From Natrinema salifodinae (lineage in GTDB: Archaea; Halobacteriota; Halobacteria; Halobacteriales; Natrialbaceae): DNA of 64,000 nt. How positions within the stretch are numbered: position 1 is the first letter of the stretch; each line of letters starts with the position of its first letter. The position numbers were made by a program, and so were the translations under genes. Shown one piece after another: positions 30,321-39,310 of this stretch. The stretch lies in contig NZ_FOIS01000002.1 in NCBI RefSeq assembly GCF_900110455.1, forward strand, positions 496,001 through 560,000, in the 5' to 3' direction. The notes under the pieces are model-generated. The model made no database searches and was not told the origin of the DNA. It worked only from the letters and a program-made list of their open reading frames with translations.

Positions 30321-30479
30321 CCGCGAGCCCGCTCGGGTGGGATCGTCCGCGTTCGACCGACGGCCGAACGCATTCGCGAACTCGCAAGATTCACGCTATA
30401 TAGTTCTTTTATCGGGTGATCTCGGCTGAGCCCGGATGCTAGATATATGTGTAGTGATGTCGTACCTCACAGCTGTCTC

Positions 30480-31526
30480 ATGGCAGAGTTTACTCTCGAG
30501 AGCGCGGACGGCCGACGGGAGGCGATGCGACGAATGGTAACAATACGGGCGTTCGACGAGGAAGCAGGGGAACGGTTCGCGGACGGCGAGATACCCGGCT
30601 TCGTCCACCTCTACATCGGCGAGGAGGCGGTCGGCGTCGGGGCCTGTGCGGCGCTCGATCCGGACGACTACATCGCGAGTACCCACCGCGGCCACGGCCA
30701 CTGCATCGCGAAGGGACTGGATCCGAAGTACATGATGGCCGAACTCTACGGCAAGGCCGAGGGCTACTGCAACGGCAAGGGCGGCTCGATGCACATCGCC
30801 GACGTCGACGCCGGCATGCTCGGCGCGAACGGCATCGTGGGGGCCGGGCCACCGCTCGCGACCGGCGCGGCGCTGTCGATCGACTACCAGGACCGCGACC
30901 AGGTCGCGGTCGGCTTCCTCGGCGACGGGGCCGTGGCCCAGGGCCAGATTCACGAGGCAATCAACCTGGCTGCCACGTGGGACCTGCCGGCGATCTTCGT
31001 CGTCGAGAACAACCACTACGGCGAGGGGACGCCGGTCGAGAACCAGCACAACCTCGACAACCTGAGCGACACGGCCCAGGCCTACGATATCCCCGGCGTG
31101 ACCGTCGACGGGATGGACGTCACCGCCGTCGCAGAGGCGGTCGCCGAGGCCCGGTCGCGGGCCCGCGCCGGCGACGGGCCGTCGCTGATCGAGGCGGAGA
31201 CGTACCGCTACCGCGGCCACTACGAGGGCGACGAGGAGCCCTACCGCGACGAGGACGAACTCGAGCGCTGGAAGGACCGCGACCCGATCACGTCGTTCAG
31301 GGACCGACTGATCGAGCGCGGCGAACTGACCGAGGCGGAGTTCGAGGACCTCCGCGCCGAGGTCGAATCGACGATCGACGACGCCGTCGAGTACGCGCAG
31401 GCGGCGGACCCACCGGAACCCGCCGACGCCTACGAGGACGTGTTCGCCGAGCGGCCGCCCGAAATCGAGCGGTTCGCCGACATCGCGCGTGCCGACGGCG
31501 GCCCGAACGGAGGTGATCGACGATGA
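30480..31526 (+). CDS. Thiamine-dependent 2-oxoacid (acetoin/pyruvate-type) dehydrogenase E1 alpha subunit
   Basis: A 348-residue E1 alpha chain. The TPP-binding motif is GDGAVAQGQIHEAINLAA ending in VENN; other family segments are STHRGHGHCIAKG and YCNGKGGSMHIAD, the latter typical of PdhA/AcoA. With E1 beta it decarboxylates a 2-oxoacid or acetoin and passes the acyl group to the lipoyl domain of E2. The neighbouring AcoX-like gene favours the acetoin-type branch, but substrate cannot be proven. ATG 30480 is chosen over the GTG-initiated extension at 30447. Its stop overlaps the E1 beta start by four bases. Confidence 0.92.
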   Translation: MAEFTLESADGRREAMRRMVTIRAFDEEAGERFADGEIPGFVHLYIGEEAVGVGACAALDPDDYIASTHRGHGHCIAKGLDPKYMMAELYGKAEGYCNGKGGSMHIADVDAGMLGANGIVGAGPPLATGAALSIDYQDRDQVAVGFLGDGAVAQGQIHEAINLAATWDLPAIFVVENNHYGEGTPVENQHNLDNLSDTAQAYDIPGVTVDGMDVTAVAEAVAEARSRARAGDGPSLIEAETYRYRGHYEGDEEPYRDEDELERWKDRDPITSFRDRLIERGELTEAEFEDLRAEVESTIDDAVEYAQAADPPEPADAYEDVFAERPPEIERFADIARADGGPNGGDRR

Positions 31527-32541: not shown

Positions 32542-33573
32542 GTGACCACCATCGGTCTGCTCGTCAACCCCGCCGCGGGACGGGATATCCGCCGGCTCAC
32601 CGGCGGTGCGAGCGTCGTCGACAACTACGCGAAACGGCGGGTCGCCGAGTGCGTCGTCGACGGCCTGGCCGTCGCGGGCGACCGCCCCGAGGTTCTGGTC
32701 ATGCCCGACCGGGCCGGGATCGCCGAGCACGCGGTCGCGGAGGCCCCCGCGGACGTCGAGGCCGCGACCCTCGAAATGCCCGTCGAGGAGACCGCGGCTG
32801 ACACCCGGCGAGCGGCGGCCGAGTTCCGCGACGCGGTCGATGTCGCGGTCGTACTGGGCGGCGACGGCACGACCCGCGACGCCGCGCTCGAACTCGGCGA
32901 CGTGCCGCTCGTGGCCGTCTCGACCGGGACGAACAACGTCGTCCCCGCGGCCGTCGACGGCACCGTCGCGGGCGCGGCCGCGGCCCTGGTCGCGACGGAC
33001 GCGGCGTCCCCCGACGCGGTGACGACCCGCCACGAGATGATCGAGGCCCGCGCCGAGACCCCGACCGGCGAGCGCGGGCTGACCGGCCTGGCCGCCGTCG
33101 AAGTCTCCTCGAAGTCGTTCATCGGGACCCGAGCGCTGCTCGATCCCGACGACCTCCGCGGTGGCCTGGTCTCGCGGGCCCACCCTGGGGACGTCGGCCT
33201 GCCAGCCGTCGCGGGCGCGCTCGAGTCGGTCGCGCCGGCCGATCCGGGCGGCGTCGCGCTCCGGCTCGCCGATCCGGACGCGACGCCCCGGTCGGTTCGA
33301 GCGATCGTCGCGCCAGGCGTCACCGCGGAGATCGGTATCGGATCGGTCGAGCGAGTCGCTCCTGACGAGCCCGTCCGGTTCGACGTGCCGGACGGCGTCG
33401 TCGGCGCCGACGGCGAGCGCGAACTCGAACTCACGGACGCGATGGTCGAACTGACGACCGTCCCGGACGGGCCGCGCCTGGTCGACGTCGACGCCGCGCT
33501 CGCGGCGGGCGCGCGAAACGGCGGCTTCGACGCCGCCGAGGTCGCCGCCGTCGACGAGATGAGCGGGGAGTGA
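32542..33573 (+). CDS. AcoX-like ATP-NAD kinase-fold protein
   Basis: A 343-residue protein from GTG 32542. The N-terminal part has the NAD-kinase-like start TTIGLLVNPAAGRD and the GGDGTTRD nucleotide motif, then VAVSTGTNNVVP. This matches AcoX, a protein of unclear function encoded inside acetoin dehydrogenase operons. Its position 11 bases after E1 beta fits that assignment. A second, more divergent NAD-kinase-like protein is encoded at 55474. It may bind NAD or a similar nucleotide; kinase activity is not established. Confidence 0.82.
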   Translation: MTTIGLLVNPAAGRDIRRLTGGASVVDNYAKRRVAECVVDGLAVAGDRPEVLVMPDRAGIAEHAVAEAPADVEAATLEMPVEETAADTRRAAAEFRDAVDVAVVLGGDGTTRDAALELGDVPLVAVSTGTNNVVPAAVDGTVAGAAAALVATDAASPDAVTTRHEMIEARAETPTGERGLTGLAAVEVSSKSFIGTRALLDPDDLRGGLVSRAHPGDVGLPAVAGALESVAPADPGGVALRLADPDATPRSVRAIVAPGVTAEIGIGSVERVAPDEPVRFDVPDGVVGADGERELELTDAMVELTTVPDGPRLVDVDAALAAGARNGGFDAAEVAAVDEMSGE

Positions 33574-33650
33574 GGGCGGTAGCCCGTTCCGACCCGCCCC
33601 CGGCGCGGCCAAAGAATTACTTCGACTCTCGTGGTACCGTTCGCCCCGAT

Positions 33651-34160
33651 ATGTCAATCGGTGACGCCCCACAACTAGACGTCGAGATCCCCGAACTGTC
33701 CCAGGTCGCGTTCGTCGTCGAGGACATCGAGGACGGGATGGACCGCTTCGGCTCGATCCTCGGGATCGGTCCCTGGCAAGTCCACCGCTTCGAGCCGCCG
33801 GCCCTGTCCGATCGTACCTTCTGCGGCGAGTCCGCCGAGTACTCGATGGTGCTCGCGCTCGCCCAGCTCGGGGACACGATGATCGAACTGATCGAACCCC
33901 TCGAGGGACCGAGCCTCTACACGGAACACCTCGAGGAACACGGCGAGGGGCTCCACCACGTCGCCTGTTTCGCCTTCGACGACCCCCACGCGGTCGTCGA
34001 CGCGTTCGAGGACGCGGGAATGCCGGTCGTCCAGAGCGGCGACTACGCGGGCACCGAGTTCTGGTACTTCGACACCGCCGCGGAGCTCAACGGCGCGATC
34101 TTCGAGACCGCAGCGAACGTCGACGCGATGCCGGAGCCCGACCGGACGTACCCGGAATAG
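33651..34160 (+). CDS. VOC (glyoxalase/epimerase-fold) family protein
   Basis: A 169-residue protein from ATG 33651 (MSIGDAPQLDVEIPELSQVAFVV, described by position). It has two beta-alpha-beta-beta-beta modules; candidate metal ligands are in LIEPLEGPS (Glu), GLHHVACF (His) and NGAIFET (Glu). It looks most like methylmalonyl-CoA epimerase and related VOC enzymes. It lies 77 bases after the AcoX-like gene on the same strand and may be the last gene of the operon. Which substrate it takes is unknown. Confidence 0.75.
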   Translation: MSIGDAPQLDVEIPELSQVAFVVEDIEDGMDRFGSILGIGPWQVHRFEPPALSDRTFCGESAEYSMVLALAQLGDTMIELIEPLEGPSLYTEHLEEHGEGLHHVACFAFDDPHAVVDAFEDAGMPVVQSGDYAGTEFWYFDTAAELNGAIFETAANVDAMPEPDRTYPE

Positions 34161-34232: not shown

Positions 34233-36170
34233 TCAGAGCTGATCCCAGGTGAGGTTCAGGTCCAGATCCGCCCGAAGTAACTGCGAGACGTGACAGCCGC
34301 GCTCCGCGAGGTCGACGATCCGCTCGAGAGTCTCGTCGTCCTCGTCCGAATCGATCTGGATCGTCGCCTCGATGCGCTCGACCGAGCCCTCTTCGGGCGC
34401 CGCATCGACGTCGACCCGGATTTCGTCGACCGCAGCGTCGCGCTTGCTCGCCTGGTACCGCGCGCTCAGCGAGAGACACGACGCGAGCCCGCCGAGGAAG
34501 ACGTCGACCGGGGTCGGACCGGTCTCGGTGCCGCCGCTTGACTCGGGTTCGTCGTAGGACCACTCGAAGGAGCCGGCTTCGATGCGACCGCGCATACCCT
34601 CGGGGTTCGCCGCGGAGACGCTGCGGCCGGGCATCTCCGTTTCCGCGTCGGCTCCGGCGGGACCGCCGTCGACCTCGGCCGCCTCGGATTCGCTCTCGGC
34701 TGCGACTCCGCCGGCCCCGTCCGCCGCGTCGGCGGCCTCGGCGACGGCGTCGGGCAGGAGCGGCCACGGCTCGGCGACGTGACCGACGAGGGTCTCGAGG
34801 AACCTGGCGGCGTCCGCGCCGTCGACGACCCGGTGGTCGAACGTAAGATCGAACGGGAGGTGGCGCCGCCACTCGACGCCGTCGTCGTCGCCGCGGGTCG
34901 GCCGCTCCGCGACGGCGTCGACGCCGAGGATGGCGACCTGCGGGGGGTTGATGATCGGATCGAACGACTCCACGCCGAGGACGCCGAGGTTCGTCACGGT
35001 GAACGTCCCGCCCTGGAGGTCGTCCATCGTGTAGTCGCCGCTGACCGCGCGGTCGACCAGGTCCCGGCGCTCGTCGGCGATTTCGGCCAGCGACTTCTCC
35101 CCGACGTCGGGGAGGACCGGTGCGATGAGCCCCTGTTCGACGTCGACGGCGATCCCGAGGTTGCGTTCCGACCAGTGCTTGTGGACGTCGTCCTCGAACG
35201 TCGCGTTGAAACCGGGATGCTCCGCGAGCGTCGCCGAGACGGCCCGAAGGAGAACGTCCTGAACCGAGACGTCCGTCTCGAGGACGTCGGACGCAACGTC
35301 GGCGGCCGCGAACAGCGCCTCGGCGTCGGCCTCGCGGTGGACCGTGACGTGGACGGCTTCGCGGTAGCTCTCGCTGAGCCGCGAGGCGATCGTCCGGCGC
35401 ATCCCGTCGAACGGGCGCTCCTCGTCGAGGGTTCGGGGTGCGGCTCCGCCCGCCGTCGCGTCAACCGCTGCGGGTTCGCTCTCCGCGGCGGCTTCGACGT
35501 CCGACGCGGAGATCGCGCCCTGGTACCCCGTTCCCTCGACGGTCGAGAGATCGACGCCCAGTTCCTCCGCGCGTTTGCGCGCCCGCGGGGACGCGTCCGG
35601 CTCGCTACCGTCTTCGTCCCCGGTGTCGGCCTCTTTTGCCGCCCGCTCGACGTCCGCTTCGCTGATCGACCCCTGGTAGCCGGTCCCCTCGACGGTCGTC
35701 AGATCGACGCCCAGCGCCGCCGCCCGCTCCCGTGCGCGGGGCGAGGCCTTGATCTCGTCGGCCGACGCGCCGTCGCCGTCCGTTGTCTCCGCGTCGGCTC
35801 CGCCGGCAGCCGACGGCTCGGCGGCCTGGTCGTCCGCCGCGGGTTCGATCTCGGTTTTCGGGCCGTCCTCGAGTTCGACGTTCGCCTCGAGATCCGCCGT
35901 CGCCTCGCTCTCGAGCCCCGAGATGTCGCTCTCGGGCGGCGCGACGATGCCGATCGGCGTCCCCGGCGGGACCGACTCGCCGGCCTCGAGGTACGTCCGC
36001 CGGAGCGCGCCGTCCTCGCGCGCCTCGACGTCTGCGACGCTCTTTTCGGACTCTACCTCGGCGATCAGATCCCCCTCGGACACCGAGTCGCCCTCGTCGG
36101 CGGCCCAGTCGAGGAGCGTCCCCCGTTCCATCTCGAGACCCAGCTTCGGCATCCGGACGATGTATCCCAT
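34233..36170 (-). CDS. Dihydrolipoamide acyltransferase (E2) fused to a C-terminal OsmC domain
   Basis: A 645-residue fusion. Residues 1-77 are a lipoyl domain with K43 in VESEKSV. Two nearly identical peripheral subunit-binding domains follow at about 143-176 and 193-226 (each with VEGTGYQG), joined by acidic linkers. The acyltransferase core spans about 250-470, with FDHRVVDGA (H446, D450). A linker of about 45 residues leads to an OsmC-like domain (about 510-645) with its two redox Cys, C565 in LGGLASCLSLSA and C626 in AERGCHVSQ. OsmC proteins reduce organic hydroperoxides and can use lipoylated partners as electron donors. ATG 36170 (MGYIVRMPKLG) is preferred over the longer frame. It sits on the opposite strand to E1. 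Confidence 0.92.
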   Translation of the reverse strand: MGYIVRMPKLGLEMERGTLLDWAADEGDSVSEGDLIAEVESEKSVADVEAREDGALRRTYLEAGESVPPGTPIGIVAPPESDISGLESEATADLEANVELEDGPKTEIEPAADDQAAEPSAAGGADAETTDGDGASADEIKASPRARERAAALGVDLTTVEGTGYQGSISEADVERAAKEADTGDEDGSEPDASPRARKRAEELGVDLSTVEGTGYQGAISASDVEAAAESEPAAVDATAGGAAPRTLDEERPFDGMRRTIASRLSESYREAVHVTVHREADAEALFAAADVASDVLETDVSVQDVLLRAVSATLAEHPGFNATFEDDVHKHWSERNLGIAVDVEQGLIAPVLPDVGEKSLAEIADERRDLVDRAVSGDYTMDDLQGGTFTVTNLGVLGVESFDPIINPPQVAILGVDAVAERPTRGDDDGVEWRRHLPFDLTFDHRVVDGADAARFLETLVGHVAEPWPLLPDAVAEAADAADGAGGVAAESESEAAEVDGGPAGADAETEMPGRSVSAANPEGMRGRIEAGSFEWSYDEPESSGGTETGPTPVDVFLGGLASCLSLSARYQASKRDAAVDEIRVDVDAAPEEGSVERIEATIQIDSDEDDETLERIVDLAERGCHVSQLLRADLDLNLTWDQL

Positions 36171-36466: not shown

Positions 36467-38371
36467 ATGAGCAGCGACGAACTTATCTGGCGAATTGCGG
36501 GGGGTTCCGGCGACGGAATCGACTCGACGAGCCAGAATTTCGCAAAAGCGCTGATGCGCTCGGGGCTCGACGTATTCACCCATCGACACTATCCGTCGCG
36601 GATCCGCGGCGGCCACACCTACGTCGAGATTCGGGCCGCAGACCACGAGGTACAGTCACGTGGTGACGGCTACAACTTCCTGCTCGCGCTGGGCGACTCG
36701 TTCGCCCGCAACCCGCAAGAAGAAGCCTACTACGGCAACGAAGAGGTCAAACCCCTCTCGGAGAATCTCGATGATCTCCGCGAGGGCGGGGTCATCATCT
36801 ACGACGAGGGCCTCGTCAGCGAGGAGGACGTCGAGGCGCTGGACCTCGAGGCCCGTGCCGAGGAGAACGACTGGCACGTCTACCCGATGGACCTCCGGTC
36901 GCTCGCGCGAGACCACGGCCGCGAGGTCATGCGCAACACTGCCGGCGTCGGCGCGACCGCCGCGCTGCTGGATATGGACCTCGAGCACATCGAGGACCTG
37001 ATGGAAGACGCCATGGGCGGGGAGATCCTCGAGTCGAATCTCGATATCCTCCACGAGGCCTACGAGATCGTCGAGGAGGAGTACGACTTCGAGCACGACC
37101 TGCGCGTGCCCGAGGGCTCCCACGAGACCGAACAGGCGCTGCTGTCGGGCTCGAACGCGATCGCCTACGGCGCGATCGACGCCGGCTGTCGGTTCATCTC
37201 CGGCTACCCGATGACGCCGTGGACCGACGTGTTCACCATCCTCAGCCAGAACTTCCCCGACATGGGCGGGATCTCCGAGCAGGTCGAAGACGAGATCGCC
37301 GCCGCGGCGCTGGCCGTCGGCGCGAGCCACGCCGGCGTCAAGGCCATGTCCGGGTCCTCCGGCGGCGGCTTCGCACTAATGTCCGAGCCGCTCGGCCTCG
37401 CCGAGATGACCGAGACGCCGCTCGTCCTCATCGAGGCGATGCGCGCCGGTCCCTCGACCGGGATGCCGACCAAGCCCGAACAGGGCGACCTCGAACACGT
37501 CCTGTACACGAGTCAGGGCGACTCCCAGCGCGTCGTCTTCGCGCCGGGTAATATCGAGGAGGCCTACGAGCAGACCCGCCTGGCCTTCGACATCGCGTGG
37601 GACTACCAGATTCCGGTCATGCTCATCTATGACCAGAAGCTCTCCGGCGAGAACACCAACGTCGACGTCGAGTTCTTCGACCGCGAACCTTCGCCGGACC
37701 TGGGCTCGACGCTGACCGAGGAAGAGCTTCGCGAGGCCGCCCACGACAACTCCGGGAAATTCAAGCGCTTCGACTACGAGAACGCCGAGGATGGCGTCGC
37801 GCCGCGCTCGCTGCCCGGTCAGAAGGGCGGCCGGTACCTCGCGACGGGCAACGAGCACAGCCCCGTCGGCCACATCAGCGAGGACCCCGACAACCGCGTC
37901 TACCAGATGGACCGGCGCCTCGAGAAGCTCGAGTCGATCCGCGAGGAACTCGACGAGGAACGCGAGTCCAACCAGACCTACTTCGGCGACGACGACGCCG
38001 AGTACGGGATCATCACGTGGGGCTCGAGCCAGGGCGCGGTCGAAGAGGCCATCGCCCGGCTCAACGACAACGGCCACTCGGTCAAGGGGCTGAGCGTCTC
38101 CGACATGATGCCGTTCGCCGAGCAGGAGGTGACGGAGTTCTTAGAGAGCGTCGACGAGGCGATGGTCGTCGAGATGAACGCCACCGCGCAGTTCCGCGGA
38201 CTCCTGCAGAAGGAACTGGGCCAGTTTGGCGAGAAGCTGACCAGCCTCCTGAAGTACAACGGCAACCCCTTCGAGCCCGCCGAGATCGTCGAGGGCTACG
38301 AGGTCAACCTCGCTGAGGAGGACCGCGAACCGACCGCACAGGTACGAATCGAACCCGCTGCAGGTGACTAA
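36467..38371 (+). CDS. porA: 2-oxoacid:ferredoxin oxidoreductase alpha subunit, probably pyruvate-specific
   Basis: A 634-residue fused gamma-alpha chain. The N-terminal gamma domain begins LIWRIAGGSGDGIDSTSQNFA and contains YPSRIRGGHTY; the alpha domain has GSNAIAYGAIDAGCRFISGYPMTPWT (described in part) and MSGSSGGGFALM, with LIEAMRAGPSTGMPTK. With the beta chain it oxidises a 2-oxoacid to acyl-CoA, reducing ferredoxin. Halobacterial enzymes come as a longer pyruvate pair and a shorter 2-oxoglutarate pair; the 634/311 lengths fit the pyruvate pair. ATG 36467. PorB follows after three bases. Confidence 0.87.
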   Translation: MSSDELIWRIAGGSGDGIDSTSQNFAKALMRSGLDVFTHRHYPSRIRGGHTYVEIRAADHEVQSRGDGYNFLLALGDSFARNPQEEAYYGNEEVKPLSENLDDLREGGVIIYDEGLVSEEDVEALDLEARAEENDWHVYPMDLRSLARDHGREVMRNTAGVGATAALLDMDLEHIEDLMEDAMGGEILESNLDILHEAYEIVEEEYDFEHDLRVPEGSHETEQALLSGSNAIAYGAIDAGCRFISGYPMTPWTDVFTILSQNFPDMGGISEQVEDEIAAAALAVGASHAGVKAMSGSSGGGFALMSEPLGLAEMTETPLVLIEAMRAGPSTGMPTKPEQGDLEHVLYTSQGDSQRVVFAPGNIEEAYEQTRLAFDIAWDYQIPVMLIYDQKLSGENTNVDVEFFDREPSPDLGSTLTEEELREAAHDNSGKFKRFDYENAEDGVAPRSLPGQKGGRYLATGNEHSPVGHISEDPDNRVYQMDRRLEKLESIREELDEERESNQTYFGDDDAEYGIITWGSSQGAVEEAIARLNDNGHSVKGLSVSDMMPFAEQEVTEFLESVDEAMVVEMNATAQFRGLLQKELGQFGEKLTSLLKYNGNPFEPAEIVEGYEVNLAEEDREPTAQVRIEPAAGD

Positions 38372-38374
38372 CCC

Positions 38375-39310
38375 ATGAGTGCATTCAACGCAATCGGTGA
38401 GGAACGGGAGATCGACCGGGACGAGTTCACCCCCGGCGTCGAACCGCAGCCGACCTGGTGTCCGGGATGCGGTGACTTCGGCGTCCTGAAGTCGCTCAAG
38501 CAGGCCCTGCCGGAAGTCGGCAAGACGCCCGAAGAGGTGCTGACCGTCACCGGGATCGGCTGTTCCGGCAAGCTGAACAGCTACCTGGATACCTACGGCT
38601 TCCACACGATCCACGGGCGCTCGCTGCCCGTGGCCCGCGCCGCGAAGCTCGCCAACCCCGACCTCGAAGTCATCGCCGCCGGCGGTGACGGCGACGGCTA
38701 CGGGATCGGCGGCAACCACTTCATCCACACGGCCCGGGAGAACCACGATATGACCTATATCGTGTTCAACAACGAGATCTTCGGCCTGACGAAGGGCCAG
38801 ACTTCGCCCACGAGCCCGAAGGGTCACAAGTCCAAGACCCAGCCCTCGGGCAGCGCGAAGACGCCGATCCGGCCGCTGTCGCAGTCGCTGACCGCCGGCG
38901 CGAGCTACATCGCTCGCACCGCCGCGGTCAACCCGAACCAGGCCAAGGAGATCATCAAGGAGGCCATCGAGCACGACGGCTTCGCACACGTCGACTTCCT
39001 GACCCAGTGTCCGACCTGGAACAAGGACGCCCGACAGTACGTCCCCTACGTCGACGTTCAGGAGTCCGACGATTACGACTTCGACGTGACCAACCGGACT
39101 GAGGCCGCCGAGATGATGCGCGAGACTGAGGACGTCCTCAACGAGGGGACCGTTCTGACCGGCCGCTACTACGTCGACGAGGACCGGCCGTCCTACACCC
39201 AGGAGAAGAAGGCCGTCGGCGAGATGCCCGACGAGCCCCTGGCCGAGCGGTACTTCGACGACGACGCCGAGTGGGAGCGTAGCTACGACCTGATCGACCG
39301 TCACAAGTAA
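38375..39310 (+). CDS. porB: 2-oxoacid:ferredoxin oxidoreductase beta subunit, probably pyruvate-specific
   Basis: A 311-residue TPP- and iron-sulfur-binding chain. Cluster ligands are in TWCPGCGDFG, GIGCSGK and TQCPTWN. The TPP motif is GGDGDGYGIGGNH with FNNEIFGLTKGQTSPTS. It begins three bases after porA, so both are translated together. Ferredoxin reduced here feeds anabolic or respiratory chains. Assignment to pyruvate rather than 2-oxoglutarate rests on chain length and is an inference. Confidence 0.88.
   Translation: MSAFNAIGEEREIDRDEFTPGVEPQPTWCPGCGDFGVLKSLKQALPEVGKTPEEVLTVTGIGCSGKLNSYLDTYGFHTIHGRSLPVARAAKLANPDLEVIAAGGDGDGYGIGGNHFIHTARENHDMTYIVFNNEIFGLTKGQTSPTSPKGHKSKTQPSGSAKTPIRPLSQSLTAGASYIARTAAVNPNQAKEIIKEAIEHDGFAHVDFLTQCPTWNKDARQYVPYVDVQESDDYDFDVTNRTEAAEMMRETEDVLNEGTVLTGRYYVDEDRPSYTQEKKAVGEMPDEPLAERYFDDDAEWERSYDLIDRHK

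What the first reader, a model, noticed from the sequence alone, without database searches (positions are those of the whole stretch)
34233..36170. Fusion of a 2-oxoacid dehydrogenase E2 with an OsmC peroxidase domain
One continuous frame joins lipoyl, subunit-binding, acyltransferase and OsmC domains; both OsmC cysteines (C565, C626) and the E2 catalytic His (H446) are present. Known biochemistry: some bacterial Ohr/OsmC proteins take electrons from lipoylated E2 and lipoamide dehydrogenase. A covalent fusion would put a hydroperoxide reductase next to its lipoyl electron donor, shielding the complex from organic peroxides or using it as a reductant source. I am not aware of this being a standard architecture.
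Basis: partly seen in the sequence, partly recalled or inferred. Interest (0 to 1): 0.72.

Follow-up and report, generated by a model that had tools for sequence, protein, structure and literature searches.

The report
Haloarchaeal E2–OsmC fusion protein
A lipoic-acid-carrying enzyme of salt-loving archaea carries an extra OsmC-type redox domain at its end; relatives that lost the rest of the enzyme keep this domain but lose the lipoic-acid attachment site, so the domain does its own job and does not simply draw on the lipoic acid beside it.

Summary
One 645-aa gene (34233-36170, minus strand) encodes lipoyl, two E3-binding, acyltransferase and OsmC domains, with K43, H446, C565 and C626 intact. 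It is no oddity: 42 of 392 Halobacteriales genomes surveyed, in five families, have the fusion, usually beside E1alpha-E1beta-AcoX genes. I found no paper describing it.

The proposed mechanism is only partly supported. The domain has an OsmC fold and both cysteines, but is not Ohr: the two residues Ohr needs for lipoyl-dependent peroxidase activity are replaced (Glu in 0 of 36, Arg in at most 3 of 36). On a supported tree, six independent lineages lost the E3-binding and acyltransferase domains and the nearby E1 genes. Each kept the OsmC domain with both cysteines under unchanged purifying selection, and each lost the lipoyl lysine. That lysine is present in 45 of 45 fusions with a readable lipoyl domain and in 0 of 12 reduced forms.

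The best reading is a self-sufficient two-cysteine OsmC-type thiol-redox domain tethered to a working-type E2, whose reductant need not be the lipoyl arm of its own chain. Its substrate and donor are unknown. Novelty: new variant of a known kind.

The parts
34233..36170 (-). E2-OsmC fusion gene (645 aa + stop)
35949..36158 (-). lipoyl domain (residues 5-74)
   Evidence: Pfam PF00364
36042..36044 (-). lipoyl-attachment lysine K43 (VESEKS)
   Evidence: conserved in 45/45 fusions with a readable lipoyl domain
35637..35747 (-). first E3-binding domain (about residues 142-178)
35493..35594 (-). second E3-binding domain (residues 193-226)
34758..35423 (-). acyltransferase catalytic domain (residues 250-471)
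   Evidence: PF00198, 2.5e-64
34833..34835 (-). catalytic His446 of DHRVVDG
34236..34637 (-). OsmC domain (about residues 512-645; Pfam core 547-640)
   Evidence: AlphaFold2 mean pLDDT 95.5; OsmC fold by Foldseek
34476..34478 (-). OsmC first (peroxidatic-type) Cys565
   Evidence: 67/67 conserved
34293..34295 (-). OsmC second (resolving-type) Cys626 in ERGCHV
   Evidence: 67/67 conserved
30447..31526 (+). E1 alpha
   Evidence: PF00676
31523..32530 (+). E1 beta
   Evidence: PF02779/PF02780
32530..33573 (+). NAD-kinase-like gene of AcoX type
   Evidence: PF01513; AcoX label from general knowledge of acetoin operons
33570..34160 (+). VOC / methylmalonyl-CoA-epimerase-like gene, convergent with the fusion
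   Evidence: PF13669; present in only part of the orthologous loci
36467..39310 (+). 2-oxoacid:ferredoxin oxidoreductase alpha and beta, divergent from the fusion; marks the locus in the family

Best explanation
The protein is a working-type E2 acyltransferase (lipoyl domain, two E3-binding domains, acyltransferase domain) of an acetoin/2-oxoacid-dehydrogenase-like complex, carrying at its C-terminus, after an acidic linker that is probably flexible, a two-cysteine OsmC-superfamily thiol-redox domain. Shown: the architecture, the intact E2 and OsmC key residues, wide conservation in haloarchaea, and repeated retention of OsmC after loss of the E2 core and E1. Inferred: C565 is oxidised by a peroxide or another sulphur-oxidising species, C626 resolves it as a disulphide, and a dithiol or low-molecular-weight thiol reduces it back. 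In the intact complex dihydrolipoyl groups (from any chain) may serve, but the lipoyl arm of its own chain is not obligatory. The tether most likely serves to hold this redox activity at the complex, next to E1 and the lipoyl arms; the activity is useful enough to be kept when the complex is lost.
For: All four domain types over Pfam cut-offs. OsmC fold at pLDDT 95.5, best PDB matches all OsmC/Ohr/YhfA-type proteins. C565 and C626 in 67/67 sequences; H446 and K43 intact in the fusions. 42 of 392 Halobacteriales genomes carry the fusion, in families f1, f4, f5, f12, f14; nearly all have E1 alpha/beta in the locus. In g43 the OsmC is a separate 195-aa gene beside E1 alpha of the same locus, a second link to the complex. 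Reduced lipoyl-OsmC forms are nested among fusions, six independent changes forced by supported branches. K43 is lost in 12/12 reduced forms, 6/6 independent pairs, sign test p 0.031. dN/dS of OsmC is 0.17-0.26 in comparisons with reduced forms against 0.12-0.28 between fusions, while the lipoyl domain rises from 0.09-0.21 to 0.24-0.42. 8/8 reduced forms of the window's family located at the KORalpha-PHP site lack E1 and AcoX there; none of the nine in the survey has a close E1 beta anywhere in the genome.
Against: No activity is known to me for this OsmC subgroup, so 'thiol-redox' rests on fold and cysteines. Loss of K43 may reflect a changed donor after the complex was lost and does not prove that the intact fusion ignores its own lipoyl arm. 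About half of the loci with this E1 type (37 of 75 genomes) have neither a fused nor an adjacent OsmC (20 of them inspected), so the domain is not required for the complex.
Confidence: 0.55

Rival explanations
1. One reading: the OsmC domain is an organic hydroperoxide reductase whose disulphide is reduced directly by the dihydrolipoyl arm of the same chain, recharged by E1 (substrate) or by E3 and NADH.
For: Ohr/OsmC proteins reduced through lipoylated E2 or GcvH and lipoamide dehydrogenase are established (Cussiol 2010, cited in PMC10332631; Trichomonas OsmC, PMC7946386; Ohr structures with dihydrolipoamide 6ebg/6ebd). K43 is always present where E1 and E2 are. E3 genes and a ligase of the LplA family exist in the genome.
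Against: Ohr catalytic Arg and Glu replaced; Ohr R19A and E51A keep only residual dihydrolipoamide-dependent activity. OsmC is kept while the lipoyl lysine is lost in six independent lineages. K43 is needed for E1/E2 turnover anyway, so its presence in fusions is no evidence of coupling.
Confidence: 0.22
2. The OsmC domain acts in something other than peroxide reduction: a thiol switch or sensor on the complex, or handling of a reactive by-product (aldehyde, persulphide, acyl thioester).
For: It belongs to an OsmC subgroup nearest NF041052 (OsmC-related (seleno)protein), not to Ohr or OsmC. Its conserved neighbours D556 and E623-R624 differ from the Ohr residues. An acetoin-type E1 and a VOC gene lie in the locus.
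Against: No direct evidence for any such substrate; the VOC gene is absent from many loci.
Confidence: 0.15
3. The domain is structural: OsmC proteins are obligate dimers, and a C-terminal OsmC dimer would join E2 trimers.
For: OsmC-fold proteins are intertwined dimers (general knowledge); the domain sits after the acyltransferase C-terminus.
Against: Both cysteines are invariant (67/67) and the domain is kept without any acyltransferase domain in 12 reduced forms; a pure assembly role predicts neither.
Confidence: 0.06

Closest known systems
Dihydrolipoyl acyltransferase (E2) of 2-oxoacid / acetoin dehydrogenase complexes
   Same: Lipoyl domain with lysine, E3-binding domains, acyltransferase domain with HxxxDG, beside E1 alpha and E1 beta
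   Different: Two E3-binding domains and a C-terminal OsmC domain; gene convergent with, not inside, the E1 operon
Ohr / OsmC lipoyl-dependent peroxidases
   Same: OsmC fold, two cysteines in the same positions, physical link to a lipoyl protein
   Different: Catalytic Arg and Glu replaced; scores far below the Ohr and OsmC curated cut-offs; fused to E2
OsmC-related (seleno)proteins (NF041052), YhfA (1ml8) and Ta0195 (2onf)
   Same: Best sequence-model match (NF041052) and best solved-structure match (2onf); YhfA shares an acidic residue nine before the first Cys and E-[RK]-x-C around the second
   Different: Stand-alone proteins without E2; the domain stays below the NF041052 cut-off
Alpha/beta hydrolase-OsmC fusions (9wo1)
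   Same: OsmC domain at the C-terminus of a longer protein; similar cysteine context
   Different: Different partner domain (hydrolase label from general knowledge; the PDB entry itself is named only osmotically inducible protein C)
Trichomonas hydrogenosomal OsmC with glycine-decarboxylase H and L proteins
   Same: OsmC drawing electrons from a lipoylated protein of an incomplete complex (PMC7946386)
   Different: Separate proteins; there the lipoyl carrier is kept, here the reduced forms lose the lipoyl lysine

Membership tests
E2 of 2-oxoacid dehydrogenase complexes | Lipoyl, E3-binding and 2-oxoacid_dh domains over curated cut-offs | tested here: met
E2 of 2-oxoacid dehydrogenase complexes | Lipoyl lysine and catalytic HxxxDG | tested here: met
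   K43, H446 and D450
E2 of 2-oxoacid dehydrogenase complexes | E1 genes in the neighbourhood | tested here: met
E2 of 2-oxoacid dehydrogenase complexes | Acyl transfer to CoA by an assembled complex | not testable with these tools
   needs biochemistry
OsmC superfamily (PF02566) | Profile match over cut-off and OsmC fold | tested here: met
   65.4 bits against 27.5
OsmC superfamily (PF02566) | Two conserved cysteines | tested here: met
   67/67
Ohr hydroperoxide reductase | Catalytic Glu ten residues before the first Cys (Glu51 of X. fastidiosa Ohr) | tested here: not met
   0/36; Val in 33/36
Ohr hydroperoxide reductase | Catalytic Arg (Arg19) | tested here: not met
   3/36 at the aligned position, Met or Leu in most; loop alignment moderately certain
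Ohr hydroperoxide reductase | Curated Ohr model score (TIGR03561) | tested here: not met
   28.8 bits against 88.85
OsmC family peroxiredoxin (TIGR03562) | Curated model score | tested here: not met
   18.3 bits against 85.8
OsmC-related (seleno)protein (NF041052) | Curated model score | tested here: not met
   70.5 bits against 95; still the strongest model for the window domain and matched by 36/36
Lipoyl-dependent peroxidase system | OsmC function depends on a lipoyl group | tested here: inconclusive
   lysine lost in 12/12 reduced forms with OsmC kept speaks against dependence in cis; lipoyl in trans not testable
Lipoyl-dependent peroxidase system | Hydroperoxide reduction with dihydrolipoamide | not testable with these tools
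   needs enzyme assay

The most novel reading that the evidence does not exclude
A previously undescribed class of E2-tethered OsmC enzyme with a different active site from Ohr, whose activity protects or regulates a haloarchaeal acetoin/2-oxoacid dehydrogenase complex. It has been repeatedly released from the complex by evolution, keeping a folded lipoyl domain that can no longer carry lipoate.
Probability: 0.4. Interest if true: 0.68.

Novelty: new variant of a known kind. Interest (0 to 1): 0.55.

Why it matters
Whether lipoyl complexes routinely power peroxide defence is usually argued from separate proteins; here nature fused the two and then took them apart several times. The reduced forms are a natural experiment on what the OsmC domain needs, and a minimal ~240-residue protein in which to measure it. 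Substrates could not be identified for several haloarchaeal 2-oxoacid dehydrogenase complexes (PMC8305020, table 1i), so a tethered redox domain is also a clue to what such complexes do.

Tried and rejected
Chance read-through or assembly error: rejected, the architecture is conserved in five families. Unique oddity of this genome: rejected. Assignment to Ohr: rejected on catalytic residues and model scores. Four further OsmC hits in long open frames (G264, G087, G194, G320) proved to be stand-alone OsmC genes in spuriously open GC-rich frames. Outside the order: none among the 295 genomes drawn from the phylum at E <= 1e-14; bacterial chromosomes were not systematically searched. Plasmid search gave only weak OsmC matches. 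A genome-contig scan with the broad OsmC alignment failed and was repeated with a narrower one, which named 21 loci. An OsmC gene 2.3 kb from another E1 pair in the same genome (L038) is separated by unrelated genes and probably coincidental. Literature: nine searches found no report of an E2-OsmC fusion; subscription journals and database-only annotation were not covered.

Full report
The finding is real. The minus strand of 34233-36170 reads as one 645-residue protein from ATG to stop. Pfam finds, each above its curated cut-off, a lipoyl domain (5-74), two E3-binding domains, the 2-oxoacid dehydrogenase acyltransferase domain (250-471) and an OsmC domain (547-640). The second E3-binding domain was not in the finding.

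Surroundings. On the plus strand, converging on the fusion, lie a PHP-domain gene, E1 alpha, E1 beta, an NAD-kinase-like gene of the kind called AcoX in acetoin operons, and a VOC gene; divergent on the other side are the alpha and beta subunits of a 2-oxoacid:ferredoxin oxidoreductase. E3 is not in this locus, but two lipoamide dehydrogenases over the curated cut-off, a ligase of the LplA/BPL family and two further stand-alone OsmC genes occur elsewhere in the genome. Which substrate the complex uses cannot be told from sequence; E1 beta matches an NCBIfam pyruvate-type subfamily model and E1 alpha falls just under its own, while the AcoX neighbour points to acetoin. For the Haloferax volcanii complexes oadhAB2 and oadhAB3, compared with acetoin dehydrogenases in that paper, no substrate was found (PMC8305020).

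How common. In the window's genus 10 of 29 genomes have the fusion. In an even draw of 392 genomes of the order, 42 have it, in five family codes (my count). Named examples holding this OsmC type include Natrinema, Natronococcus, Natronorubrum, Halobiforma, Natrarchaeobius and Halobellus. Of 75 genomes with E1 beta at least 73% identical to the window's, 34 have the fusion, 4 have a separate OsmC gene beside E1 alpha, and 37 have neither (20 of the 37 inspected). None was seen outside the order in 295 genomes drawn from the phylum. No paper in the library searched describes it.

What the OsmC domain is. AlphaFold2 gives an OsmC fold with mean pLDDT 95.5; the nearest solved structures are Ta0195, OsmC-like proteins, YhfA and Ohr proteins. 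Both cysteines are present in all 67 sequences aligned. But it is not Ohr. The Glu that in Ohr sits ten residues before the first cysteine is Val in 33 and Glu in none of 36; the Ohr Arg position is Met or Leu in most and Arg in 3. [quoted passage not shown] All 36 match the OsmC-related (seleno)protein model, the strongest for the window domain, below its cut-off and well ahead of Ohr and OsmC. Conserved instead are D556 and E623-R624 near the two cysteines, a pattern shared in part with YhfA.

A natural experiment. In three genomes of the genus, and in five more of the family, the same chromosomal site between the ferredoxin-oxidoreductase and PHP genes holds only a ~240-280-residue protein: a lipoyl-like domain followed directly by OsmC; E1, AcoX and the E3-binding and acyltransferase domains are gone. 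Four more such proteins occur elsewhere in the order. In the maximum-likelihood tree of OsmC domains these reduced forms fall among the fusions, and supported branches force six independent changes. The direction, loss and not gain, is inferred from nesting and synteny. Every one of the 12 reduced forms lacks the lipoyl lysine, by substitution (SERR, SESG, SGAS and others) or by insertion into the lysine hairpin, against 45 of 45 fusions whose lipoyl domain reads in frame; in the paired test 6 of 6 independent pairs go this way, p 0.031. The OsmC cysteines are kept in all. Pairwise dN/dS of OsmC stays at 0.17-0.26, as between fusions (0.12-0.28), while the lipoyl domain relaxes from 0.09-0.21 to 0.24-0.42. 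The lipoyl-like part of one of the most diverged reduced forms is still predicted to fold (pLDDT about 75-92) and matches the human E2 lipoyl domain at 1.1 A; in two others only its first half is left. One protein, L114, looks like an intermediate: acyltransferase and OsmC intact, E3-binding domains missing, lipoyl domain without lysine, no E1 in the locus.

Interpretation. The OsmC domain has a function worth keeping when E1 and E2 are gone, and that function does not need lipoate on its own chain. It does not exclude that in intact complexes dihydrolipoyl groups reduce OsmC, for which there are good precedents with separate proteins. The co-localised stand-alone OsmC of g43 supports a link to the complex independent of covalent fusion. 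I therefore favour an autonomous two-cysteine thiol-redox domain tethered to the E2, with donor and oxidant unknown; peroxide reduction is the likeliest chemistry by fold, but with a different active-site environment from Ohr.

Limits. No enzyme has been assayed; counts depend on one draw of genomes and on BLAST thresholds; the Arg-loop alignment is less certain than the Glu position; the tree rests on 140 columns; bacterial chromosomes and subscription literature were not searched.

Noticed in passing
L095-L098, L129, L174-L184: At the same E1 alpha-E1 beta-AcoX locus, 16 of 16 examined E2 proteins of a second type have an acyltransferase domain that lost the catalytic motif (DHRxxDG became e.g. 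YDTRAIG or YDPRVLD); nearly all keep the lipoyl lysine. A lipoylatable, apparently acyltransferase-dead E2.
   Followed up: partly
L095-L098: OsmC is a separate 195-aa gene divergent from E1 alpha, and the E2 of the same locus is of the acyltransferase-dead type.
   Followed up: partly
L114:8691-10169: Apparent intermediate of decay: acyltransferase and OsmC intact, E3-binding domains missing, lipoyl domain without lysine, no E1 nearby.
   Followed up: partly
L118:7704-8462: A second, ordinary OsmC gene lies directly downstream of an E2-OsmC fusion; no E1 was found in that locus, only fragments similar to AcoX.
   Followed up: no
L134:6034-9223: A different locus with E1 alpha, E1 beta, a 141-aa frame with a weak lipoyl-domain match and a stand-alone acyltransferase domain: a split E2 (similar stand-alone acyltransferase in L133 and L135).
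   Followed up: no
L041:8589-10603: In G016 the fusion's lipoyl domain lies in an overlapping different frame, either a frameshift mutation or a sequencing error.
   Followed up: no
L038:3347-8332: A stand-alone OsmC gene lies 2.3 kb from another E1 alpha/beta pair in the window's genome, with unrelated genes between.
   Followed up: partly
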